A stretch of 64,000 bases of DNA. It comes from Sorangium aterium (lineage in GTDB: Bacteria; Myxococcota_A; Polyangia; Polyangiales; Polyangiaceae). Below the pieces are notes generated by a model, which searched no databases, was not told the origin of the DNA, and saw only the letters and a program-made list of their open reading frames with translations. Below are positions 11,422 through 19,205 of the stretch, piece after piece; positions within the stretch are counted from its first letter, which is position 1; each line of letters begins with the position of its first letter. Both the position numbers and the translations under genes were made by a program. The stretch is from contig NZ_JAQNDK010000001.1 in assembly GCF_028368935.1 (NCBI RefSeq), forward strand, positions 3,720,001-3,784,000. The letters are read 5' to 3'.

Positions 11422-11672
11422 GGCGTCTCCCTTAACACGCTTCCGGCGTCGCGTTGAACTTCTATCGTTCCTTTTTAACGCGCGGCGCCAGCCACGCCCG
11501 ACGCGCAGGACGCGGCCTCGCGCCCGACCCTGGAGCGGCGCTTGCGTCATAGCGAAATCGCTTCCCGCCGTGACAATTCGCCCGTCCAGACCGCAATGCA
11601 CCGGGCGGCTGTGCCCGCCGCGCCTCACCTGTGGATGCGCGCTCCCTGGCGCGCGGCGGCGCTCGGGCCCTC

Positions 11673-12908
11673 ACGCGAAGCGCACGGCGGGCCTCACGAC
11701 CGTTCGCTGGCGCACCAGCGCACCGTTCCAGCGATGGGGCAGGAGCGGAACGCGGGGAAGGAAACCGCTGCAAGCAATCGAAACTACAAGCATTTTTTTG
11801 AATCAAGATGACGAGCGACCGATCGCGAACGACAGCGTCGCAAAACGGCCGAAGTGCCAATCACCGAGACCCACGCGGCGGAGCAGGCGCGAGGTGCACT
11901 GCGCGCCACACACGAGGTGGGATTGACGCCGGCGGTGCTGTACGCGCCGACGCGGGCTGCGGCGCGCCGCGGTGATCGGTGCGTGCGCCTGTGGTGCGAG
12001 ACAGGCGCCATGCTCTCCCGGCGCTCCCGAGACCAACACCGCGTCTCGACGCCCCGACGCCGCACGTCTACGCTGTGACGATGGGTTTCGTCGCGAGCCT
12101 TTTCATCGTCTACGGGGTCGCCGGGGTGGTGCTGGGCGTCGCGGTCGCCATCGCGATCGGGCGCTGCCTCCACCACCGGCGGCGCTCGCAGATCGCCGCG
12201 TATGCGCGGAGCCCTTCGGCATCACCCGGCGCGATACGCGAGGGGTTTGCGCTCCTGCGCGGCGAGGTGAGCGCGGAGGACGCCGCGCCGGGCGAACCGG
12301 TGATCGCTGTCGAGATCCCGTGCGGCGGCCATGCCAGCGCCGCGCCGAGCGCGTGGCAGACGCGGGCGCGCGCGTTCTCGCTCCGGCTCCCCTCGGGCGC
12401 CGCGGTGCGGGTCGAGCCGACGAGCGGCAGGCTGAGCCTCGACACAACCTTCGTCCCGACGAGGCGCGGCGGCGCGCCCGCCTACGTGTCCGAGGTCCGC
12501 CCCGGCGACACGATCTACATCGCGGGCTCGGTGCGCCGCGAGATCGACGCGAGCGCCGCTGGCTCGGGGTACCGCGACGCCGCGCGGGCCTGGGTGCTCC
12601 GGGCGCCTGCGCACGGCAGCCTCTGCGTCGCCTCGGAGACGGTCATCGCCCACCACGCCCAGCGCGCGCGGTTCCACCGCGCCTGGGCGCTCGCGCTCGG
12701 CGGGGCGCTCGCGGCGCTCCACCTCGGCCCGTTCCGCGCGTTCCACGCGAGCGTGCTCGGCACCGTCGAGTCGGCCGGGAGCATCGACATCGGCTCGGCC
12801 GCGCTCGCGCTCTTCTTCGTCGGCGCCGCGGCGCTCACCTACCGCACCCTGGCCGAGCAGACCTCGCCCTGGATCGAGCTCCGCGTGGATCGCTCGAGGG
12901 CGGCCTAG
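11673..12908 (+). repeat. Segmental duplication, long copy
   Basis: This segment starts near CGCGAAGCGCACGGCGGG and runs to the stop of the membrane protein at 12908. It is repeated in the same orientation at 14738-15582 with about 90% identity judged by eye. The first 400 bp are non-coding in both copies and as well conserved as the coding part, so the duplication is recent. The intervening 13339-14616 gene is single copy. No transposase or target-site duplication is visible at the ends. The region 11422-11672 before it contains only the upstream region of the exporter operon. Confidence 0.8.
12081..12908 (+). CDS. Membrane protein of unknown function, full-length paralogue
   Basis: A protein of 275 residues. 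Residues 1-28 form a membrane helix (ASLFIVYGVAGVVLGVAVAI), then RCLHHRRRSQ on the cytoplasmic side. A soluble domain of about 150 residues follows with FALLRGEVSAED near 55, GDTIYIAGSVRREI near 150 and WVLRAPAHGSL near 172; the spacing weakly recalls the GIDE/MUL1-type membrane domain, but I would not name it so. Two helices end the protein (about 200-217 and 235-255). The ATG at 12081 begins the part conserved with the copy at 15145. It lies in the long copy of the segmental duplication. Function is unknown. Confidence 0.7.
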   Translation: MGFVASLFIVYGVAGVVLGVAVAIAIGRCLHHRRRSQIAAYARSPSASPGAIREGFALLRGEVSAEDAAPGEPVIAVEIPCGGHASAAPSAWQTRARAFSLRLPSGAAVRVEPTSGRLSLDTTFVPTRRGGAPAYVSEVRPGDTIYIAGSVRREIDASAAGSGYRDAARAWVLRAPAHGSLCVASETVIAHHAQRARFHRAWALALGGALAALHLGPFRAFHASVLGTVESAGSIDIGSAALALFFVGAAALTYRTLAEQTSPWIELRVDRSRAA

Positions 12909-13338
12909 CTCAGGCTGCGCGATTCGTCTGTAGCCGCGGCTTGCGCGCGGTGGATCGCCCGCGAGCAGGGATTGCGTGCCGAAGCGCCCTGGAGGCCTCC
13001 GGCAAGGCGTTGTCGGCAACCAGCAGGCCTGTGCCGCGGTGGTCCGGCATGTACATGTCGAGCGTCGGCTCGGCTGCGTCGTGGCGCGCTTCCGCTTGAC
13101 GAAGAAAATGACGGTCTTGCCCTCCGGCTGGTCGGAATCGACGCCGGGATTCTCACGCGGTAAGGCGAAGGCGCCATGTCCCCGTCCGACCCCTTGTTGG
13201 TAGATCACGCGCCCCCCTCTCGGCTCGAGGCCGGCAAGGCCGCGCGGGTCCTGGCCGTGGCCCGCCTGGTCAAGCGCTTCGTGAGCGCCGGAGGGCGCCC
13301 CGACGCGACGCCCCCCACCTTCCCCGCGAGAGGATGCC
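12909..13338. other. Intergenic region before the nitrilase-FYVE gene
   Basis: There is no recognisable gene in these 430 bp. Short frames on both strands show no domain. The last 15 bp hold the purine-rich site (GAGAGG) of the next gene. The region is not part of the duplicated segment, so it came with, or was already next to, the single-copy gene. Confidence 0.4.
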
Positions 13339-14616
13339 ATGCCCCTTGTGATCATCGTGTGGAACCCGGTGCACGAAGTCCTTCAGAAGCTCTCCCTGGG
13401 CCAGAAGTGGGAGGAGCTCGTTGCCGCGTTGGACGTCGCACAGAAGCGGTTCGTCGGCGTCAACGACGAGCTCATCTTCGTCGCACCAGACTACCTGTTT
13501 CACGACGATGTCGAACCGTACACGACGAAGGATTTGGAGTTCTATGGAAGCAAGATGAAATCCCTATCGAACGAGCTGCCGTCAAAATACCTTGTAGTGG
13601 CCGGCTCCATGCAGTGGGTCGATGACGGCAAGAAGAAGCTGTCGGTGTCCACGCTCGTCGCGAGCAAGGAATTCGTATTTCGCTACGACAAGAAGCGCAA
13701 GGCGGGCACCGAGGACTCCCCGCAGTTCGCGTTCAACCCGGGGACAACCACGGGCCACTTCGAGTGGAGTGGGCTCTCGTGCGGGATCGAGATCTGCCAG
13801 GATCACGAGGAGGCGGTCCTCCTCGATGAGGTCAGGAAGACCCTCGATATACACATCATGCTCTCGTTCGGCCAGATCCGGCGCGATCGGAACATGGCGC
13901 TCAAACGTGAGGGCATCTTCATTCAATGCGAGCTCGAGAGCTATGAATACTGGAACAAGCAAAAGCCCGGGTTTGAACCGGTGAGCGGCATTTTTCGACA
14001 TAACCTTAAGCACCATCAGAGTTCCAAGCAATTAATACCACAGGTCAAATCGATCGCGGACGGACTGGAGGAGACGAGCCATGGTATCTTCCGGCTCGCC
14101 AAGACGGGACCCCGCACGACGTTCACAACGACGCAGCCGCTCACGTTCCAGAAGACGACGCCCCTGCTCACGACCTCGACGACGACGCCTCTGCTCACGA
14201 CCTCGACGACGACGCCTCTGCTCACGACCTCGACGCCGCAGCCGCTCACGCTCCAGACGACGCCGCAGCCGCTCACGCTCCAGAAGACGGCGCAGCCGCT
14301 CACGCCCCCGAAGACGACCACGCCGTCGTTCACGCTCCCGCCCCCGACGTCGAAGTCGGTGCTCCCTCCAACGTCGCGCGTGGTTCAGCAGATCCCCACC
14401 TGGCAAGAGGATGACCTCGTCTCGCGGTGCCCTCTGTGCGACCGTGATTTCTCGTTCACGCTGCGTCGCCACCATTGCCGCAAGTGCGGCAAGGTCGTTT
14501 GCGACGACTGCTCCACGGCACGGAAGATCCTTCCAAGCCCCGTCCCGAAGCCGAGCTTCTTTTGGAGCAGCACGGTGGAGACGGGGGCGCTGCGCGTCTG
14601 CGACTCGTGCAACTGA
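13339..14616 (+). CDS. Nitrilase-like domain fused to a C-terminal FYVE zinc finger
   Basis: A protein of 425 residues. Residues 1-240 look like a carbon-nitrogen hydrolase: the nucleophile site is CGIEICQD (Cys153), Lys118/119 in YDKKRK match the lysine strand, but the expected Glu is Asp51 in VAPDYLF. Residues about 255-345 are a Thr/Pro/Leu linker with repeats such as TTPLLTTST. Residues 352-425 carry all three FYVE signatures: WxxD (W355-D358), RRHHCRKCG (376-384) and RVC (419-421), with four CxxC pairs at 364/367, 380/383, 388/391 and 421/424 giving eight zinc ligands. FYVE domains bind phosphatidylinositol 3-phosphate on eukaryotic endosomes and are very rare in bacteria. Codon use (TTT, AAA, ATA, AAT) is less GC-biased than in neighbours, suggesting transfer. 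GAGAGG lies 7 nt before the ATG. There is no signal peptide. The gene is single copy between two duplicated segments. Confidence 0.85.
   Translation: MPLVIIVWNPVHEVLQKLSLGQKWEELVAALDVAQKRFVGVNDELIFVAPDYLFHDDVEPYTTKDLEFYGSKMKSLSNELPSKYLVVAGSMQWVDDGKKKLSVSTLVASKEFVFRYDKKRKAGTEDSPQFAFNPGTTTGHFEWSGLSCGIEICQDHEEAVLLDEVRKTLDIHIMLSFGQIRRDRNMALKREGIFIQCELESYEYWNKQKPGFEPVSGIFRHNLKHHQSSKQLIPQVKSIADGLEETSHGIFRLAKTGPRTTFTTTQPLTFQKTTPLLTTSTTTPLLTTSTTTPLLTTSTPQPLTLQTTPQPLTLQKTAQPLTPPKTTTPSFTLPPPTSKSVLPPTSRVVQQIPTWQEDDLVSRCPLCDRDFSFTLRRHHCRKCGKVVCDDCSTARKILPSPVPKPSFFWSSTVETGALRVCDSCN
14155..14235 (+). repeat. 27-bp tandem repeat, three units, in the linker of the nitrilase-FYVE gene
   Basis: Three in-frame 27-bp units (14155, 14182, 14209) encode TTPLLTTST and differ at only one base. 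Looser PQPLTLQ-type repeats follow to about 14345. The repeats make a flexible, length-variable spacer between the enzyme-like domain and the FYVE finger. Confidence 0.85.
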
Positions 14617-14737
14617 TGGCAGGATGGCGCTCTCCCTCGTTCGATCCCGTCCAGGCTCGGAGGGCTCATCCCCTGCCTCGTCGCGCTCGACGCCCGACCG
14701 CCGGGCGCTGCGCGAGCGGCTCCTCACGCGGGCCTTC

Positions 14738-15582
14738 GCGCGAAGCGCACGGCGGGCCTCACGACCGTTCGCTGGCGCACCAGGGCACCGCTCCAGCGAT
14801 GGATCAGGAGCGGAACGCGGGGAGGGAAACCGCTGCAAGCAATCGAAACTACAAGCATTTATCGAACCCAGCGCACGAGCGACCGATCGCGAACGACAGC
14901 GCTGCACAACGGCCGAAGTGCCAATCACCGAGACCCACGCGGCGGAGCAGGCGGGAGATGCGCTGCGCGCCACACACGAGGTGGGATTGACGCCGGCGGC
15001 GCTGTACGCGCCGACGCGGGCCGCGGCGCGCCGCGGTGATCGGTGCGTGCGCCTGGGGTGCGAGACGCGCGCCGTGCTCTCCCGGCGCTCTTGAGACCAA
15101 CACCCCATCTCGACGTCCCGACGCCGCACGTCTACGCTGGCACGATGGGTTTCGTCGCGAGCCTTTTCATCGTCTACGGGGTCGCCGGGGTGGTGCTGGG
15201 TGTCGCGGTCGCCATCGCGATCGGGCGCTGCCTCCACCACCGGCGGCGCTCGCAGATCGCCGCGTATGCGCGGAGCCCTTCGGCCTCGCCCGGCGCGATA
15301 CGCGAGGGGTTCGCGCTCCTGCGCGGCGAGGTGAGCGCGGAGGACGCCGCGCCGGGTGACGCGGTGATCGCTGTCGAGATCCCGTGCGGCGGCCACCTCG
15401 GCCCGTTCCGCGCGTTCCACGCGAGCGTGCTCGGCACCGTCGAGCCGACCGGGAGCATCGACATCGGCCCGGCCGCGCTCGCGCTCTTCTTCGTCGGCGC
15501 CGCGGCGCTCACCTACCGCACCCTGGCCGAGCAGACCTCTCCCTGGATCGAGCTCCGCGTGGATCGCTCGAGGGCGGCCTAG
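14738..15582 (+). repeat. Segmental duplication, short copy
   Basis: Direct repeat of 11673-12908. The non-coding first 400 bp are present in full with scattered substitutions and small indels; inside the gene, 390 bp are missing. At 14617-14737, between the nitrilase-FYVE stop and the repeat, no gene is seen. Confidence 0.8.
15145..15582 (+). CDS. Internally deleted paralogue of the 12081 membrane protein
   Basis: A protein of 145 residues that is nearly identical to the first 85 and last 60 residues of the protein at 12081-12908. The missing 130 codons remove most of the soluble domain and the second hydrophobic segment, so that GGH is joined directly to LGPFRAF. Both sides of the deletion carry CCA at the join, which fits a microhomology-mediated deletion. 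The reading frame, start context and stop are intact, and substitutions outside the deletion keep the frame open, so a short two-helix protein may still be made. Whether it is functional or a decaying copy cannot be told. Confidence 0.6.
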   Translation: MGFVASLFIVYGVAGVVLGVAVAIAIGRCLHHRRRSQIAAYARSPSASPGAIREGFALLRGEVSAEDAAPGDAVIAVEIPCGGHLGPFRAFHASVLGTVEPTGSIDIGPAALALFFVGAAALTYRTLAEQTSPWIELRVDRSRAA

Positions 15583-15617
15583 CGCACCGAGCGCGCTGGA
15601 GTCCCGAGGAAATCAAC

Positions 15618-15729
15618 AGAAGGGAAGAGAAACCGCAAGGGGCGCGAGGGGCGCAAGGGACGGGCAAGAGAAGTTCTCGTCTCTGGTCCCTTGCGCCCCT
15701 CGGCGCCCCTTGCGGTTCCTCTCTTTTCT
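15618..15729. repeat. Long inverted repeat (hairpin element A)
   Basis: Arms 15618-15660 and 15687-15729 are about 43 bp each and almost perfectly complementary around a 26-bp loop; the core is AACCGCAAGGGGCGC. It lies just after the short membrane protein gene and before the convergent LysR gene, where it can act as a bidirectional terminator. A related element lies at 21754-21918. Confidence 0.8.
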
Positions 15730-15840
15730 GCATTCCTTGCCCTTGGACCTTGCTTCCCGGCAGATCGGTCGGGCCTCGCAACCCATTGATTCGCTTGTTC
15801 ACGTTATCCAAGGGGCCGCGCGGCGCCGGCGATCCTGACG

Positions 15841-18173: not shown

Positions 18174-19205
18174 TCAGCGGAGGTACGGGCTCAACGCCTG
18201 GAACCAAACCTCGGCCATGCGGTTATACCCTGCCTGGTTCGGGTGGAGATTGTCGGCGAAGAGGGACTGCTTGTAGTTCGGGTCGTTGGTGAACGCTGTG
18301 TACATGTCCACCAGCACGATGTGCTGCCCCTTGCTAACGCGCGTCGAAACCAGGTCGGGCATGGCCGCGTTGTAGGCCTTGACGTTGTTGTTCGTGCCGT
18401 CCGTTCTCGTCGGCACGATCTGCGCGAGCACCACGAGGATGTTCGGATCACGCATGAAAATCGAGTCGAGCAGCTTGCCCAGGCGATTCGGTGCGTCCGC
18501 AAGGTTGATGTTACCGTTGATGTCGTTCGTTCCGATCATCAACGTAATGATGTTGGGCTTGTAATTCGGAATGCTGGTGCCCACGAGCTGCGCGATGCCG
18601 TTGTTGCCCTCGATCGTCCAGCCGCCGTGACCCTCGTGGTTCCTCGGGAACGTCACTCCGTCCACCATGGGCACGCTGTAATCACTGGCGGAACCGACGA
18701 AGGTGATGTCGCGGTTCGCTTCGAGCGCGAGGTGGAACAGCGGGGCGCGGTAGCCGCCGGCGACGTTGAATCCCTGCGTGATTGAATCGCCGAAGGGCAT
18801 GATCTTACAGGAGCCGCTCGCCGGGCAGGGCTGGAATGCCGGGCCGCCGCCCGCGCCAGCGCTGCCCCCTGCGCCACCTCCCTCGCCCGCGGTACCTCCG
18901 ACACCGTCGGATCCGCCGCCCATGCCACCCGAGCCCGCTCCGCCGGCGCCCCCGGTGCCGCCGCCGGCCGTGCCTCCCCCACCGGCGTTCGCCGCGCCCC
19001 CGCTGGTCGCGCTCGAGCCGGAACTGCCGGGCGAGCCGCCACCCGCCGCTGTCCCGCTGCCGCTCGTGGTCTCGGAGCTGGCCGTGCTCGCGGTTCCGCC
19101 CGTCGTCGTGCCCGGCGAGTCGGCGTCATCACTGCACGCTGCGACGAGCAGCACCACACACGCGAGGACGGCGGAAGAAGAGAATTTCAGGCGGTGTACG
19201 AGCAT
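18174..19205 (-). CDS. SGNH/GDSL-family esterase lipoprotein
   Basis: A protein of 343 residues. A signal peptide ends in VLLVAACSDD (Cys about 24), a lipobox. About 100 residues of Gly/Ser/Thr-rich spacer follow, then a Cys pair and the SGNH hydrolase domain: block I FGDSITQGFN with the nucleophile Ser, block III IGTNDING, and block V ADNLHPNQAGYNRM with the catalytic Asp and His. This arrangement is shared with carbohydrate esterase family 3 acetylxylan esterases, so deacetylation of plant polysaccharide at the cell surface is a fair guess. The Gly-rich spacer is usual in secreted Sorangium proteins. It is convergent with the aldo/keto reductase; the 270 bp between them show no gene. Confidence 0.85.
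   Translation of the reverse strand: MLVHRLKFSSSAVLACVVLLVAACSDDADSPGTTTGGTASTASSETTSGSGTAAGGGSPGSSGSSATSGGAANAGGGGTAGGGTGGAGGAGSGGMGGGSDGVGGTAGEGGGAGGSAGAGGGPAFQPCPASGSCKIMPFGDSITQGFNVAGGYRAPLFHLALEANRDITFVGSASDYSVPMVDGVTFPRNHEGHGGWTIEGNNGIAQLVGTSIPNYKPNIITLMIGTNDINGNINLADAPNRLGKLLDSIFMRDPNILVVLAQIVPTRTDGTNNNVKAYNAAMPDLVSTRVSKGQHIVLVDMYTAFTNDPNYKQSLFADNLHPNQAGYNRMAEVWFQALSPYLR

What the first reader, a model, noticed from the sequence alone, without database searches (positions are those of the whole stretch)
13339..14616. Bacterial nitrilase-like protein with a complete FYVE zinc finger
The C terminus has all three FYVE signatures (WxxD, RRHHCRKCG, RVC) and eight zinc ligands, joined by a repeat-rich Thr/Pro linker to a nitrilase-like domain with Cys153 and Lys118 but Asp51 where Glu is expected. 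FYVE fingers bind phosphatidylinositol 3-phosphate on eukaryotic endosomes, and bacteria normally lack this lipid. A predatory soil bacterium might use such a protein on eukaryotic prey or host membranes, or may have captured the domain and use it for another ligand. I know of no described system with this fusion. Codon use also differs from neighbours.
Basis: partly seen in the sequence, partly recalled or inferred. Interest (0 to 1): 0.9.

Follow-up and report, generated by a model that had tools for sequence, protein, structure and literature searches.

The report
Bacterial enzyme with an endosome-binding FYVE finger
A large-genome bacterium encodes a nitrilase-like protein ending in a eukaryote-style FYVE zinc finger, and some related bacterial FYVE proteins sit beside injection-machine genes, which suggests they are proteins fired into eukaryotic cells and anchored to their endosomes.

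Summary
The FYVE finger is real: Pfam 64 bits, E 1.4e-17; eight zinc ligands, WxxD, RRHHCRKCG, RVC; the modelled domain best matches EEA1. It is the only FYVE found in its 13.5-Mb genome and rare in a phylum sample (4 of 377 over cut-off). The N-terminus is a divergent nitrilase-superfamily domain, below Pfam detection but supported by profile comparison; the catalytic Glu is Asp51, whereas two relatives keep Glu. I collected 24 bacterial FYVE proteins from 12 genomes. Partner domains differ (nitrilase-like, DrrA/SidM-like, GDSL lipase, DUF6765; weaker YopT- and Tle1-like), yet most keep the PI3P-pocket motifs. Four of 24 lie in or beside type VI secretion (T6SS) genes, in two genomes; 9 of 11 searchable FYVE genomes, the window's included, have a T6SS sheath gene. 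The window gene itself has no T6SS neighbour. Best reading: a secreted, probably T6SS-delivered, anti-eukaryotic effector tethered to PI3P membranes. Delivery, PI3P binding and activity are inferred. Ten literature searches listed no described FYVE-bearing bacterial effector.

The parts
13328..13333 (+). Shine-Dalgarno-like GAGAGG upstream of the ATG
   Evidence: sequence printed
13339..14616 (+). whole gene: nitrilase-like domain, Thr/Pro linker, C-terminal FYVE (425 aa plus stop)
13339..14088 (+). divergent nitrilase-superfamily domain, residues 1-250 (approximate limit)
   Evidence: hhalign A3 against eight nitrilases Prob 86.7, E 4.4e-6 over 78 columns; control against VipB Prob 0.1; not found by Pfam
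13489..13491 (+). codon of Asp51, in the place of the catalytic Glu
   Evidence: Glu invariant in the eight nitrilases of A5
13690..13692 (+). codon of Lys118 (RYDK motif, expected catalytic Lys)
13795..13797 (+). codon of Cys153 (EICQDH motif, expected nucleophile)
14107..14388 (+). Thr/Pro-rich linker, residues 257-350, with direct repeats mostly 27 nt apart
14398..14610 (+). FYVE zinc finger, residues 354-424
   Evidence: Pfam PF01363 E 1.4e-17; EEA1 by sequence and by modelled fold
11664..12912 (+). left copy of a direct repeat flanking the gene, with a 309-aa ORF
14729..15586 (+). right copy of the repeat (93.9 and 96.5% identical in two blocks, about 380 bp missing between them)

Best explanation
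The gene encodes a secreted effector aimed at eukaryotic cells (amoebae or other protists). After delivery, most likely by one of the cell's type VI secretion systems, the C-terminal FYVE finger docks on phosphatidylinositol 3-phosphate (PI3P) on endosomes, phagosomes or autophagosomes. The long Thr/Pro linker acts as a flexible tether, and the N-terminal nitrilase-fold domain acts on, or holds, a target at that membrane through Cys153 and Lys118. Shown here: the FYVE domain, its motifs and modelled fold, the fusion, relatives beside T6SS genes, T6SS sheath genes in this genome. Inferred: PI3P binding, delivery route, target, and whether the Asp51 version is still catalytic.
For: FYVE at 64 bits; EEA1 FYVE top by sequence and by fold (1joc, E 1.8e-6). 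PI3P motifs are mostly kept while partner domains change: of 24 bacterial FYVE proteins, W..D or W..N in 20 (strict W..D in 18), HHCRxCG in 22, Arg or Lys before HHC in 21, [RK][VILM]C at the seventh ligand in 21. Partner domains are of effector type: SidM_N over its cut-off in L003 and L019, with solved DrrA matching L019 at E 1.1e-5 and L003 only at 0.09; GDSL lipase over its cut-off in L018; YopT-type domain in L056, below cut-off; Tle1-like in L049, below cut-off. T6SS linkage: L051 after TssE-TssF-TssG; L050 beside a Clp-type ATPase, Hcp and VgrG; L018 after a VgrG C-terminus; L088, FYVE with DUF6765, in a VipA/VipB/VasE/TssF cluster just before a Clp-type ATPase. VipB in the window's genome at five places and in 8 of 10 other FYVE genomes, against 63 of 356 in a phylum sample. 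A nitrilase relative with Glu, Lys and Cys motifs lies next to a FYVE gene in L014. Precedents: OpiA, a T6SS effector recruited by PI3P (passages of PMC7641602); SetA, enzyme-linker-C-terminal PI3P domain of another fold (passages of PMC13037854).
Against: Ten ORFs around the window gene (6.1-20.7 kb) show no T6SS family in Pfam, and 20 of the 24 FYVE genes showed no T6SS neighbour in the stretches I looked at, mostly by eye and for a few only some 3-6 kb. Three of the four linked cases come from one MAG whose species label is doubtful, and one of those (L051) has a FYVE below the Pfam cut-off (25.1 bits; over it), without the last Cys of the core and without RVC. No secretion signal or T6SS marker was recognised in the window protein. 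No biochemical evidence of PI3P binding. The nitrilase assignment rests on 78 aligned columns; against a single nitrilase the probability is only 47.5; AlphaFold gave no usable model of this part (mean pLDDT 32.5). Asp51 may have ended catalysis. VipB is common in the window's own family (18 family genomes, own included), so its presence here is weak evidence by itself.
Confidence: 0.6

Rival explanations
1. The FYVE finger is a T6SS loading or sorting module (working like the MIX, FIX or RIX markers, names recalled) and does not bind PI3P; the cargo could then be aimed at bacteria as well as eukaryotes.
For: FYVE is the shared element among otherwise unrelated proteins, four of them beside T6SS genes, and it occurs N-terminally, in the middle or C-terminally.
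Against: The motifs mostly kept are those of PI3P recognition; a loading module need not keep WxxD or R-K-HHCR. Two of 11 FYVE genomes show no VipB: G315, which carries only a weak FYVE-like protein, and the 2.5-Mb genome G455.
Confidence: 0.13
2. The protein stays inside the bacterium and the FYVE finger binds another ligand (a bacterial lipid, a protein, or an endogenous phosphoinositide).
For: No signal peptide or T6SS marker was recognised; the window gene has no T6SS neighbour; one FYVE-like protein (L007) looks by eye like an intracellular kinase protein.
Against: Several partner domains are of effector type and the PI3P motifs are mostly kept. No match to anti-phage defence models in 8 of 8 proteins tested.
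Confidence: 0.14
3. A decaying or non-catalytic remnant: captured gene with an inactive nitrilase domain (Glu to Asp), now without a selected function.
For: Asp51 where the eight compared nitrilases have Glu and the two nearest relatives keep Glu; flanked by imperfect direct repeats; no FYVE in the five same-genus genomes listed.
Against: Full-length open frame with third-position G+C of 0.78-0.93 across the three parts, all eight zinc ligands and all FYVE motifs intact.
Confidence: 0.1
4. Eukaryotic contamination or mis-assembly.
For: FYVE is best known as a eukaryotic domain.
Against: The gene lies 3.73 Mb into contig C1 of a 13.5-Mb, 7-contig genome, with a ribosome-binding-site-like motif, an uninterrupted frame and high third-position G+C; other bacterial FYVE genes sit on contigs of 248, 314 and 564 kb.
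Confidence: 0.02

Closest known systems
EEA1-type FYVE domains (PF01363; EEA1, RUFY1, Vps27, Hrs, endofin)
   Same: Eight Cys ligands, WxxD, R(R/K)HHCRxCG, RVC, overall fold of the model.
   Different: Bacterial host, fusion to a nitrilase-like domain, longer loop between the sixth and seventh ligand.
Legionella SetA / LtpM class of PI3P-guided effectors
   Same: Enzyme domain, flexible linker, C-terminal PI3P-binding domain (SetA passages; LtpM seen in a search listing only).
   Different: SetA uses a different fold, and the paper itself sets it apart from FYVE; its type IV delivery is recalled. Here the module is a canonical FYVE.
Francisella OpiA (T6SS effector recruited by PI3P)
   Same: T6SS substrate encoded outside the T6SS island that uses PI3P to reach endosomes (passages).
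   Different: A PI3-kinase, with no FYVE mentioned in that review. T6SS export of the window protein is only inferred.
Nitrilase superfamily (CN_hydrolase, PF00795)
   Same: Order and motifs of Lys and Cys; profile similarity.
   Different: Asp51 for Glu; below Pfam detection; C-terminal FYVE.
DrrA/SidM nucleotidyltransferase domain (in relatives L003 and L019, not in the window)
   Same: SidM_N over cut-off in both; solved DrrA matches L019 at E 1.1e-5, L003 only at 0.09.
   Different: Fused to FYVE instead of the PI4P-binding domain of DrrA (the latter recalled).

Membership tests
FYVE domain (PF01363) | score over the curated cut-off | tested here: met
   64 bits against 27.8
FYVE domain (PF01363) | eight zinc ligands, WxxD, R(R/K)HHCRxCG, RVC | tested here: met
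FYVE domain (PF01363) | FYVE fold | tested here: met
   model mean pLDDT 77.1; the ten matches with E <= 0.001 are all FYVE structures
FYVE domain (PF01363) | PI3P binding | not testable with these tools
   needs liposome or overlay assay
Nitrilase superfamily | Pfam CN_hydrolase over cut-off | tested here: not met
   no hit for the window protein; relative L014 16.4 bits, cut-off 23.2
Nitrilase superfamily | profile-level homology | tested here: met
   hhalign Prob 86.7, E 4.4e-6 against eight nitrilases; control Prob 0.1; against one nitrilase alone Prob 47.5, E 1.9e-4
Nitrilase superfamily | Glu-Lys-Cys triad | tested here: not met
   Lys118 and Cys153 present, Glu replaced by Asp51
Nitrilase superfamily | nitrilase fold | tested here: inconclusive
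   AlphaFold mean pLDDT 32.5 with two rows
T6SS effector | T6SS in the same genome | tested here: met
   five VipB places; other T6SS genes were not searched for in that genome
T6SS effector | gene beside VgrG, Hcp, PAAR or core T6SS genes | tested here: not met
   no T6SS family in ten ORFs around the window gene; met for 4 of 24 FYVE proteins collected
T6SS effector | secretion dependent on the sheath | not testable with these tools
   needs secretome of wild type and deletion strain
Anti-phage defence protein | match to a PADLOC model | tested here: not met
   0 of 8 proteins match at E <= 0.01, the window protein among them

The most novel reading that the evidence does not exclude
FYVE is a transferable PI3P address label that bacteria of several phyla have attached to many unrelated effector enzymes, many of them T6SS cargo, for action on the endosomes and phagosomes of protists; the window protein is the nitrilase-type member of this class.
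Probability: 0.5. Interest if true: 0.87.

Novelty: new variant of a known kind. Interest (0 to 1): 0.78.

Why it matters
In the passages I read, SetA binds PI3P through a fold its authors distinguish from FYVE, and OpiA is a PI3-kinase recruited by PI3P; one study reports no canonical FYVE or PX domain in the bacterial effectors it analysed (passage of PMC5599653). A class of environmental bacteria using the FYVE module itself would give a simple sequence handle for finding effectors aimed at protists, would imply transfer of an endosome-sorting domain between eukaryotes and bacteria, and would make such interactions testable gene by gene.

Tried and rejected
Whole-protein scan of GTDB contigs: 51 stretches, no relative. 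The scan with the FYVE alignment gave 9 loci of 261 stretches. Viral contigs: FYVE, 18 stretches and no relative; nitrilase, 23 stretches and no relative. FYVE in phage and plasmid records and the N-terminus in plasmid records: no match. Nitrilase alignment in 247 genomes of the phylum of G450: only the seed genome. Nitrilase profiles against the PDB: nothing credible. AlphaFold of the N-terminal domain failed, so no fold search was made with it. Of the sub-threshold FYVE hits in the phylum I read the frames of L008, L009 and L010 and saw no convincing FYVE; L004, L011, L012 and L013 were not opened. In 392 genomes of the phylum of G453, 13 other genomes had only sub-threshold hits, not opened; one genome, G453 itself, was over the cut-off. 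For the nitrilase yardstick A5 I used seven of the eight own-genome places over the CN_hydrolase cut-off (L086 was left out) plus L006. NCBIfam gave only a weak NAD synthase match for the window protein, E 0.15. Defence models: none. A tree of bacterial against eukaryotic FYVE domains was considered and left out (too short, few eukaryotic sequences at hand).

Full report
What is there. The ORF at 13339-14616 (+) encodes 425 residues. Pfam finds one domain over its cut-off: FYVE, E 1.4e-17, residues 354-424. The nearest solved sequence is the EEA1 FYVE domain. A model of the last 79 residues, built with eight bacterial FYVE relatives, has mean pLDDT 77.1, and the ten PDB matches with E <= 0.001 are all FYVE structures, led by EEA1 bound to inositol 1,3-diphosphate. 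No Pfam domain is found in the N-terminal part. A 94-residue segment with 33 Thr and 18 Pro links the two.

The N-terminal domain. A search of 377 phylum genomes found one weak match besides itself, to an ordinary nitrilase (L006, E 1.1e-4). Two nearer relatives then appeared: L014:2500-3609 in an Acidobacteriota contig and, weakly (E 0.0034), L065 in the genome G451. The three-row profile matches eight nitrilases (seven of the eight over-cut-off places of the window's own genome plus L006) with hhalign probability 86.7 and E 4.4e-6 over 78 columns, aligning the Lys and Cys motifs; against L006 alone the probability is 47.5; the control comparison with VipB sheath proteins gives 0.1. Both relatives keep Glu (APEYLF, MPEFFF); the window protein has Asp51. 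L014 also shows the Lys (RYHK) and Cys (EICADH) motifs, though the plain alignment does not put its Lys on Lys118; I did not identify the Lys of L065. So this is probably a divergent nitrilase-superfamily domain with Lys118 and Cys153 and a changed third residue. The fold could not be modelled.

Distribution. FYVE over the cut-off occurs in 3 of 108 genomes of the family and 4 of 377 of the phylum sample, the window's own included; the five same-genus genomes listed have none. A scan of GTDB contigs with the FYVE alignment gave nine loci, by their record titles in several phyla, three of them on contigs of 248-564 kb. Eight genomes behind these loci hold 20 FYVE places, seven in one Desulfobacteraceae MAG and four in one MAG labelled Kuenenia; the Paraburkholderia genome of L015 is not held. 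In the phylum of the Kuenenia MAG only one of 392 genomes, the MAG itself, is over the cut-off. The domain is thus rare, patchy and locally multiplied. I collected 24 proteins from 12 genomes: these 20, the window's, L003, L007 and L015. L007 (FYVE-like finger, kinase-like end by eye) is weak and probably of another kind.

What FYVE is attached to. SidM_N and DUF294 in L003 and L019, over the cut-offs, with solved DrrA matching L019 at E 1.1e-5 but L003 only at 0.09; GDSL lipase in L018, over the cut-off; DUF6765 in L088, over the cut-off; YopT-type cysteine protease in L056 at E 9.4e-6, below the NCBIfam cut-off; Tle1-like in L049 at E 0.0018, below the cut-off; a JAB-like stretch in L015 at E 0.17, only a hint. 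The other partner regions gave no credible match in the libraries they were scanned against. A papain- or Ulp1-like reading of L048 and L052-L054 is mine by eye and was not confirmed. L014 carries, within 5.5 kb, the nitrilase relative, two FYVE proteins and a protein with a sub-threshold YopT-type match.

Type VI secretion. Four of the 24 FYVE genes lie in or beside T6SS genes. L051 follows TssE (GPW_gp25), TssF and TssG; L050 is beside a Clp-type ATPase, Hcp and VgrG; L018 follows a VgrG C-terminus. These three are in one MAG; two of the contigs share an exact 149-bp end, so they may be one island. The FYVE of L051 is divergent: 25.1 bits, below the cut-off, though over it. The fourth, L088, in a Methylobacter MAG, lies in a cluster with VipA, VipB, VasE/TssK, TssF and a sub-threshold TssG, directly before a Clp-type ATPase. 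The other 20 show no such neighbours in the stretches I looked at; for the window this was tested with Pfam on ten ORFs, for the rest mostly by eye on predicted ORFs, and for L007, L020, L022 and L057 only on some 3-6.5 kb. VipB is found in 8 of 10 other FYVE genomes and at five places in the window's genome, 9 of 11 in all. In a phylum sample 63 of 356 genomes have VipB, 55 of 220 among the better ones. The comparison is rough, because the FYVE genomes span several phyla.

Motif coherence. Over the 24 proteins, W..D or W..N is present in 20 (strict W..D in 18), HHCRxCG in 22, Arg or Lys before HHC in 21, and [RK][VILM]C at the seventh ligand in 21. The proteins that miss one or more of these (N allowed for D) are L007, L017, L048, L051, L057 and L058. 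A zinc finger kept only for its metal site would not be expected to keep the phosphoinositide contacts (those contacts are recalled knowledge of FYVE structures).

Mechanism. I think the protein is delivered into eukaryotic cells, docks by FYVE to PI3P membranes and presents the nitrilase-fold domain there; the Thr/Pro linker is the tether. OpiA shows that a T6SS effector encoded outside the T6SS island can be recruited by PI3P (passages of PMC7641602). SetA shows the order enzyme - flexible linker - C-terminal PI3P domain, with a fold that its authors set apart from FYVE (passages of PMC13037854). What the nitrilase domain does is open: amide or ester chemistry if Asp51 still works, or binding if it does not.

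Literature. Ten searches of the held open-access library listed no paper that I could see to describe FYVE-bearing bacterial effectors; four of the lists were cut (20 of 163 shown, 15 of 16, 10 of 14, 15 of 180). I read passages of PMC7641602, PMC13037854, PMC5599653, PMC4765838 (56, a clan-level mention of zf-FYVE-PHD in Myxococcus genomes) and PMC4431377, and looked for terms without a hit in the held part of PMC3482391. All other papers were seen as listings only. Most subscription papers and all bioRxiv preprints are outside the library, so novelty is provisional.

Origin of the window. The genome (13.5 Mb; same-genus genomes up to 14.8 Mb) fits a large-genome myxobacterium such as Sorangium; this is inference from size, no name was given. 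The gene is bracketed by two imperfect copies of a repeat about 3 kb apart, which could have allowed its gain or could allow its loss; I did not test this.

Noticed in passing
window 11664-12912 and 14729-15586: Direct repeats (two blocks of 93.9 and 96.5% identity) flank the FYVE gene; the right copy lacks about 380 bp and its ORF is shortened. Neither copy's ORF has a Pfam match.
   Followed up: partly
L014:2500-7994: Acidobacteriota cluster of four effector-like genes: nitrilase-like with Glu, Lys and Cys motifs, two FYVE proteins and a protein with a sub-threshold YopT-type match.
   Followed up: partly
L003:1456-2898 and L019:4678-6174: SidM/DrrA-like nucleotidyltransferase domain fused to FYVE in a genome of the window's family and a Methylobacter MAG.
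   Followed up: partly
L088:15639-17156: DUF6765 protein with C-terminal FYVE inside a T6SS cluster, which suggests a role for DUF6765 as effector domain.
   Followed up: partly
L048:3453-7484: Vibrio sinus 1344-residue frame with C-terminal FYVE and a stretch that by eye resembles CE-clan cysteine proteases; not confirmed by Pfam, NCBIfam or PDB search.
   Followed up: partly
L007:1447-3192: FYVE-like finger at the N-terminus of a protein that by eye has a kinase-like end; aberrant motif, probably another kind of protein.
   Followed up: no
window 18174-19205 (-): GDSL-type lipase/acylhydrolase gene with a Gly/Ser/Thr-rich N-terminal stretch, 3.6 kb from the FYVE gene.
   Followed up: no
window 15617-15730: Pair of 45-nt inverted repeats, 71% complementary, just after the right flank repeat.
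   Followed up: no
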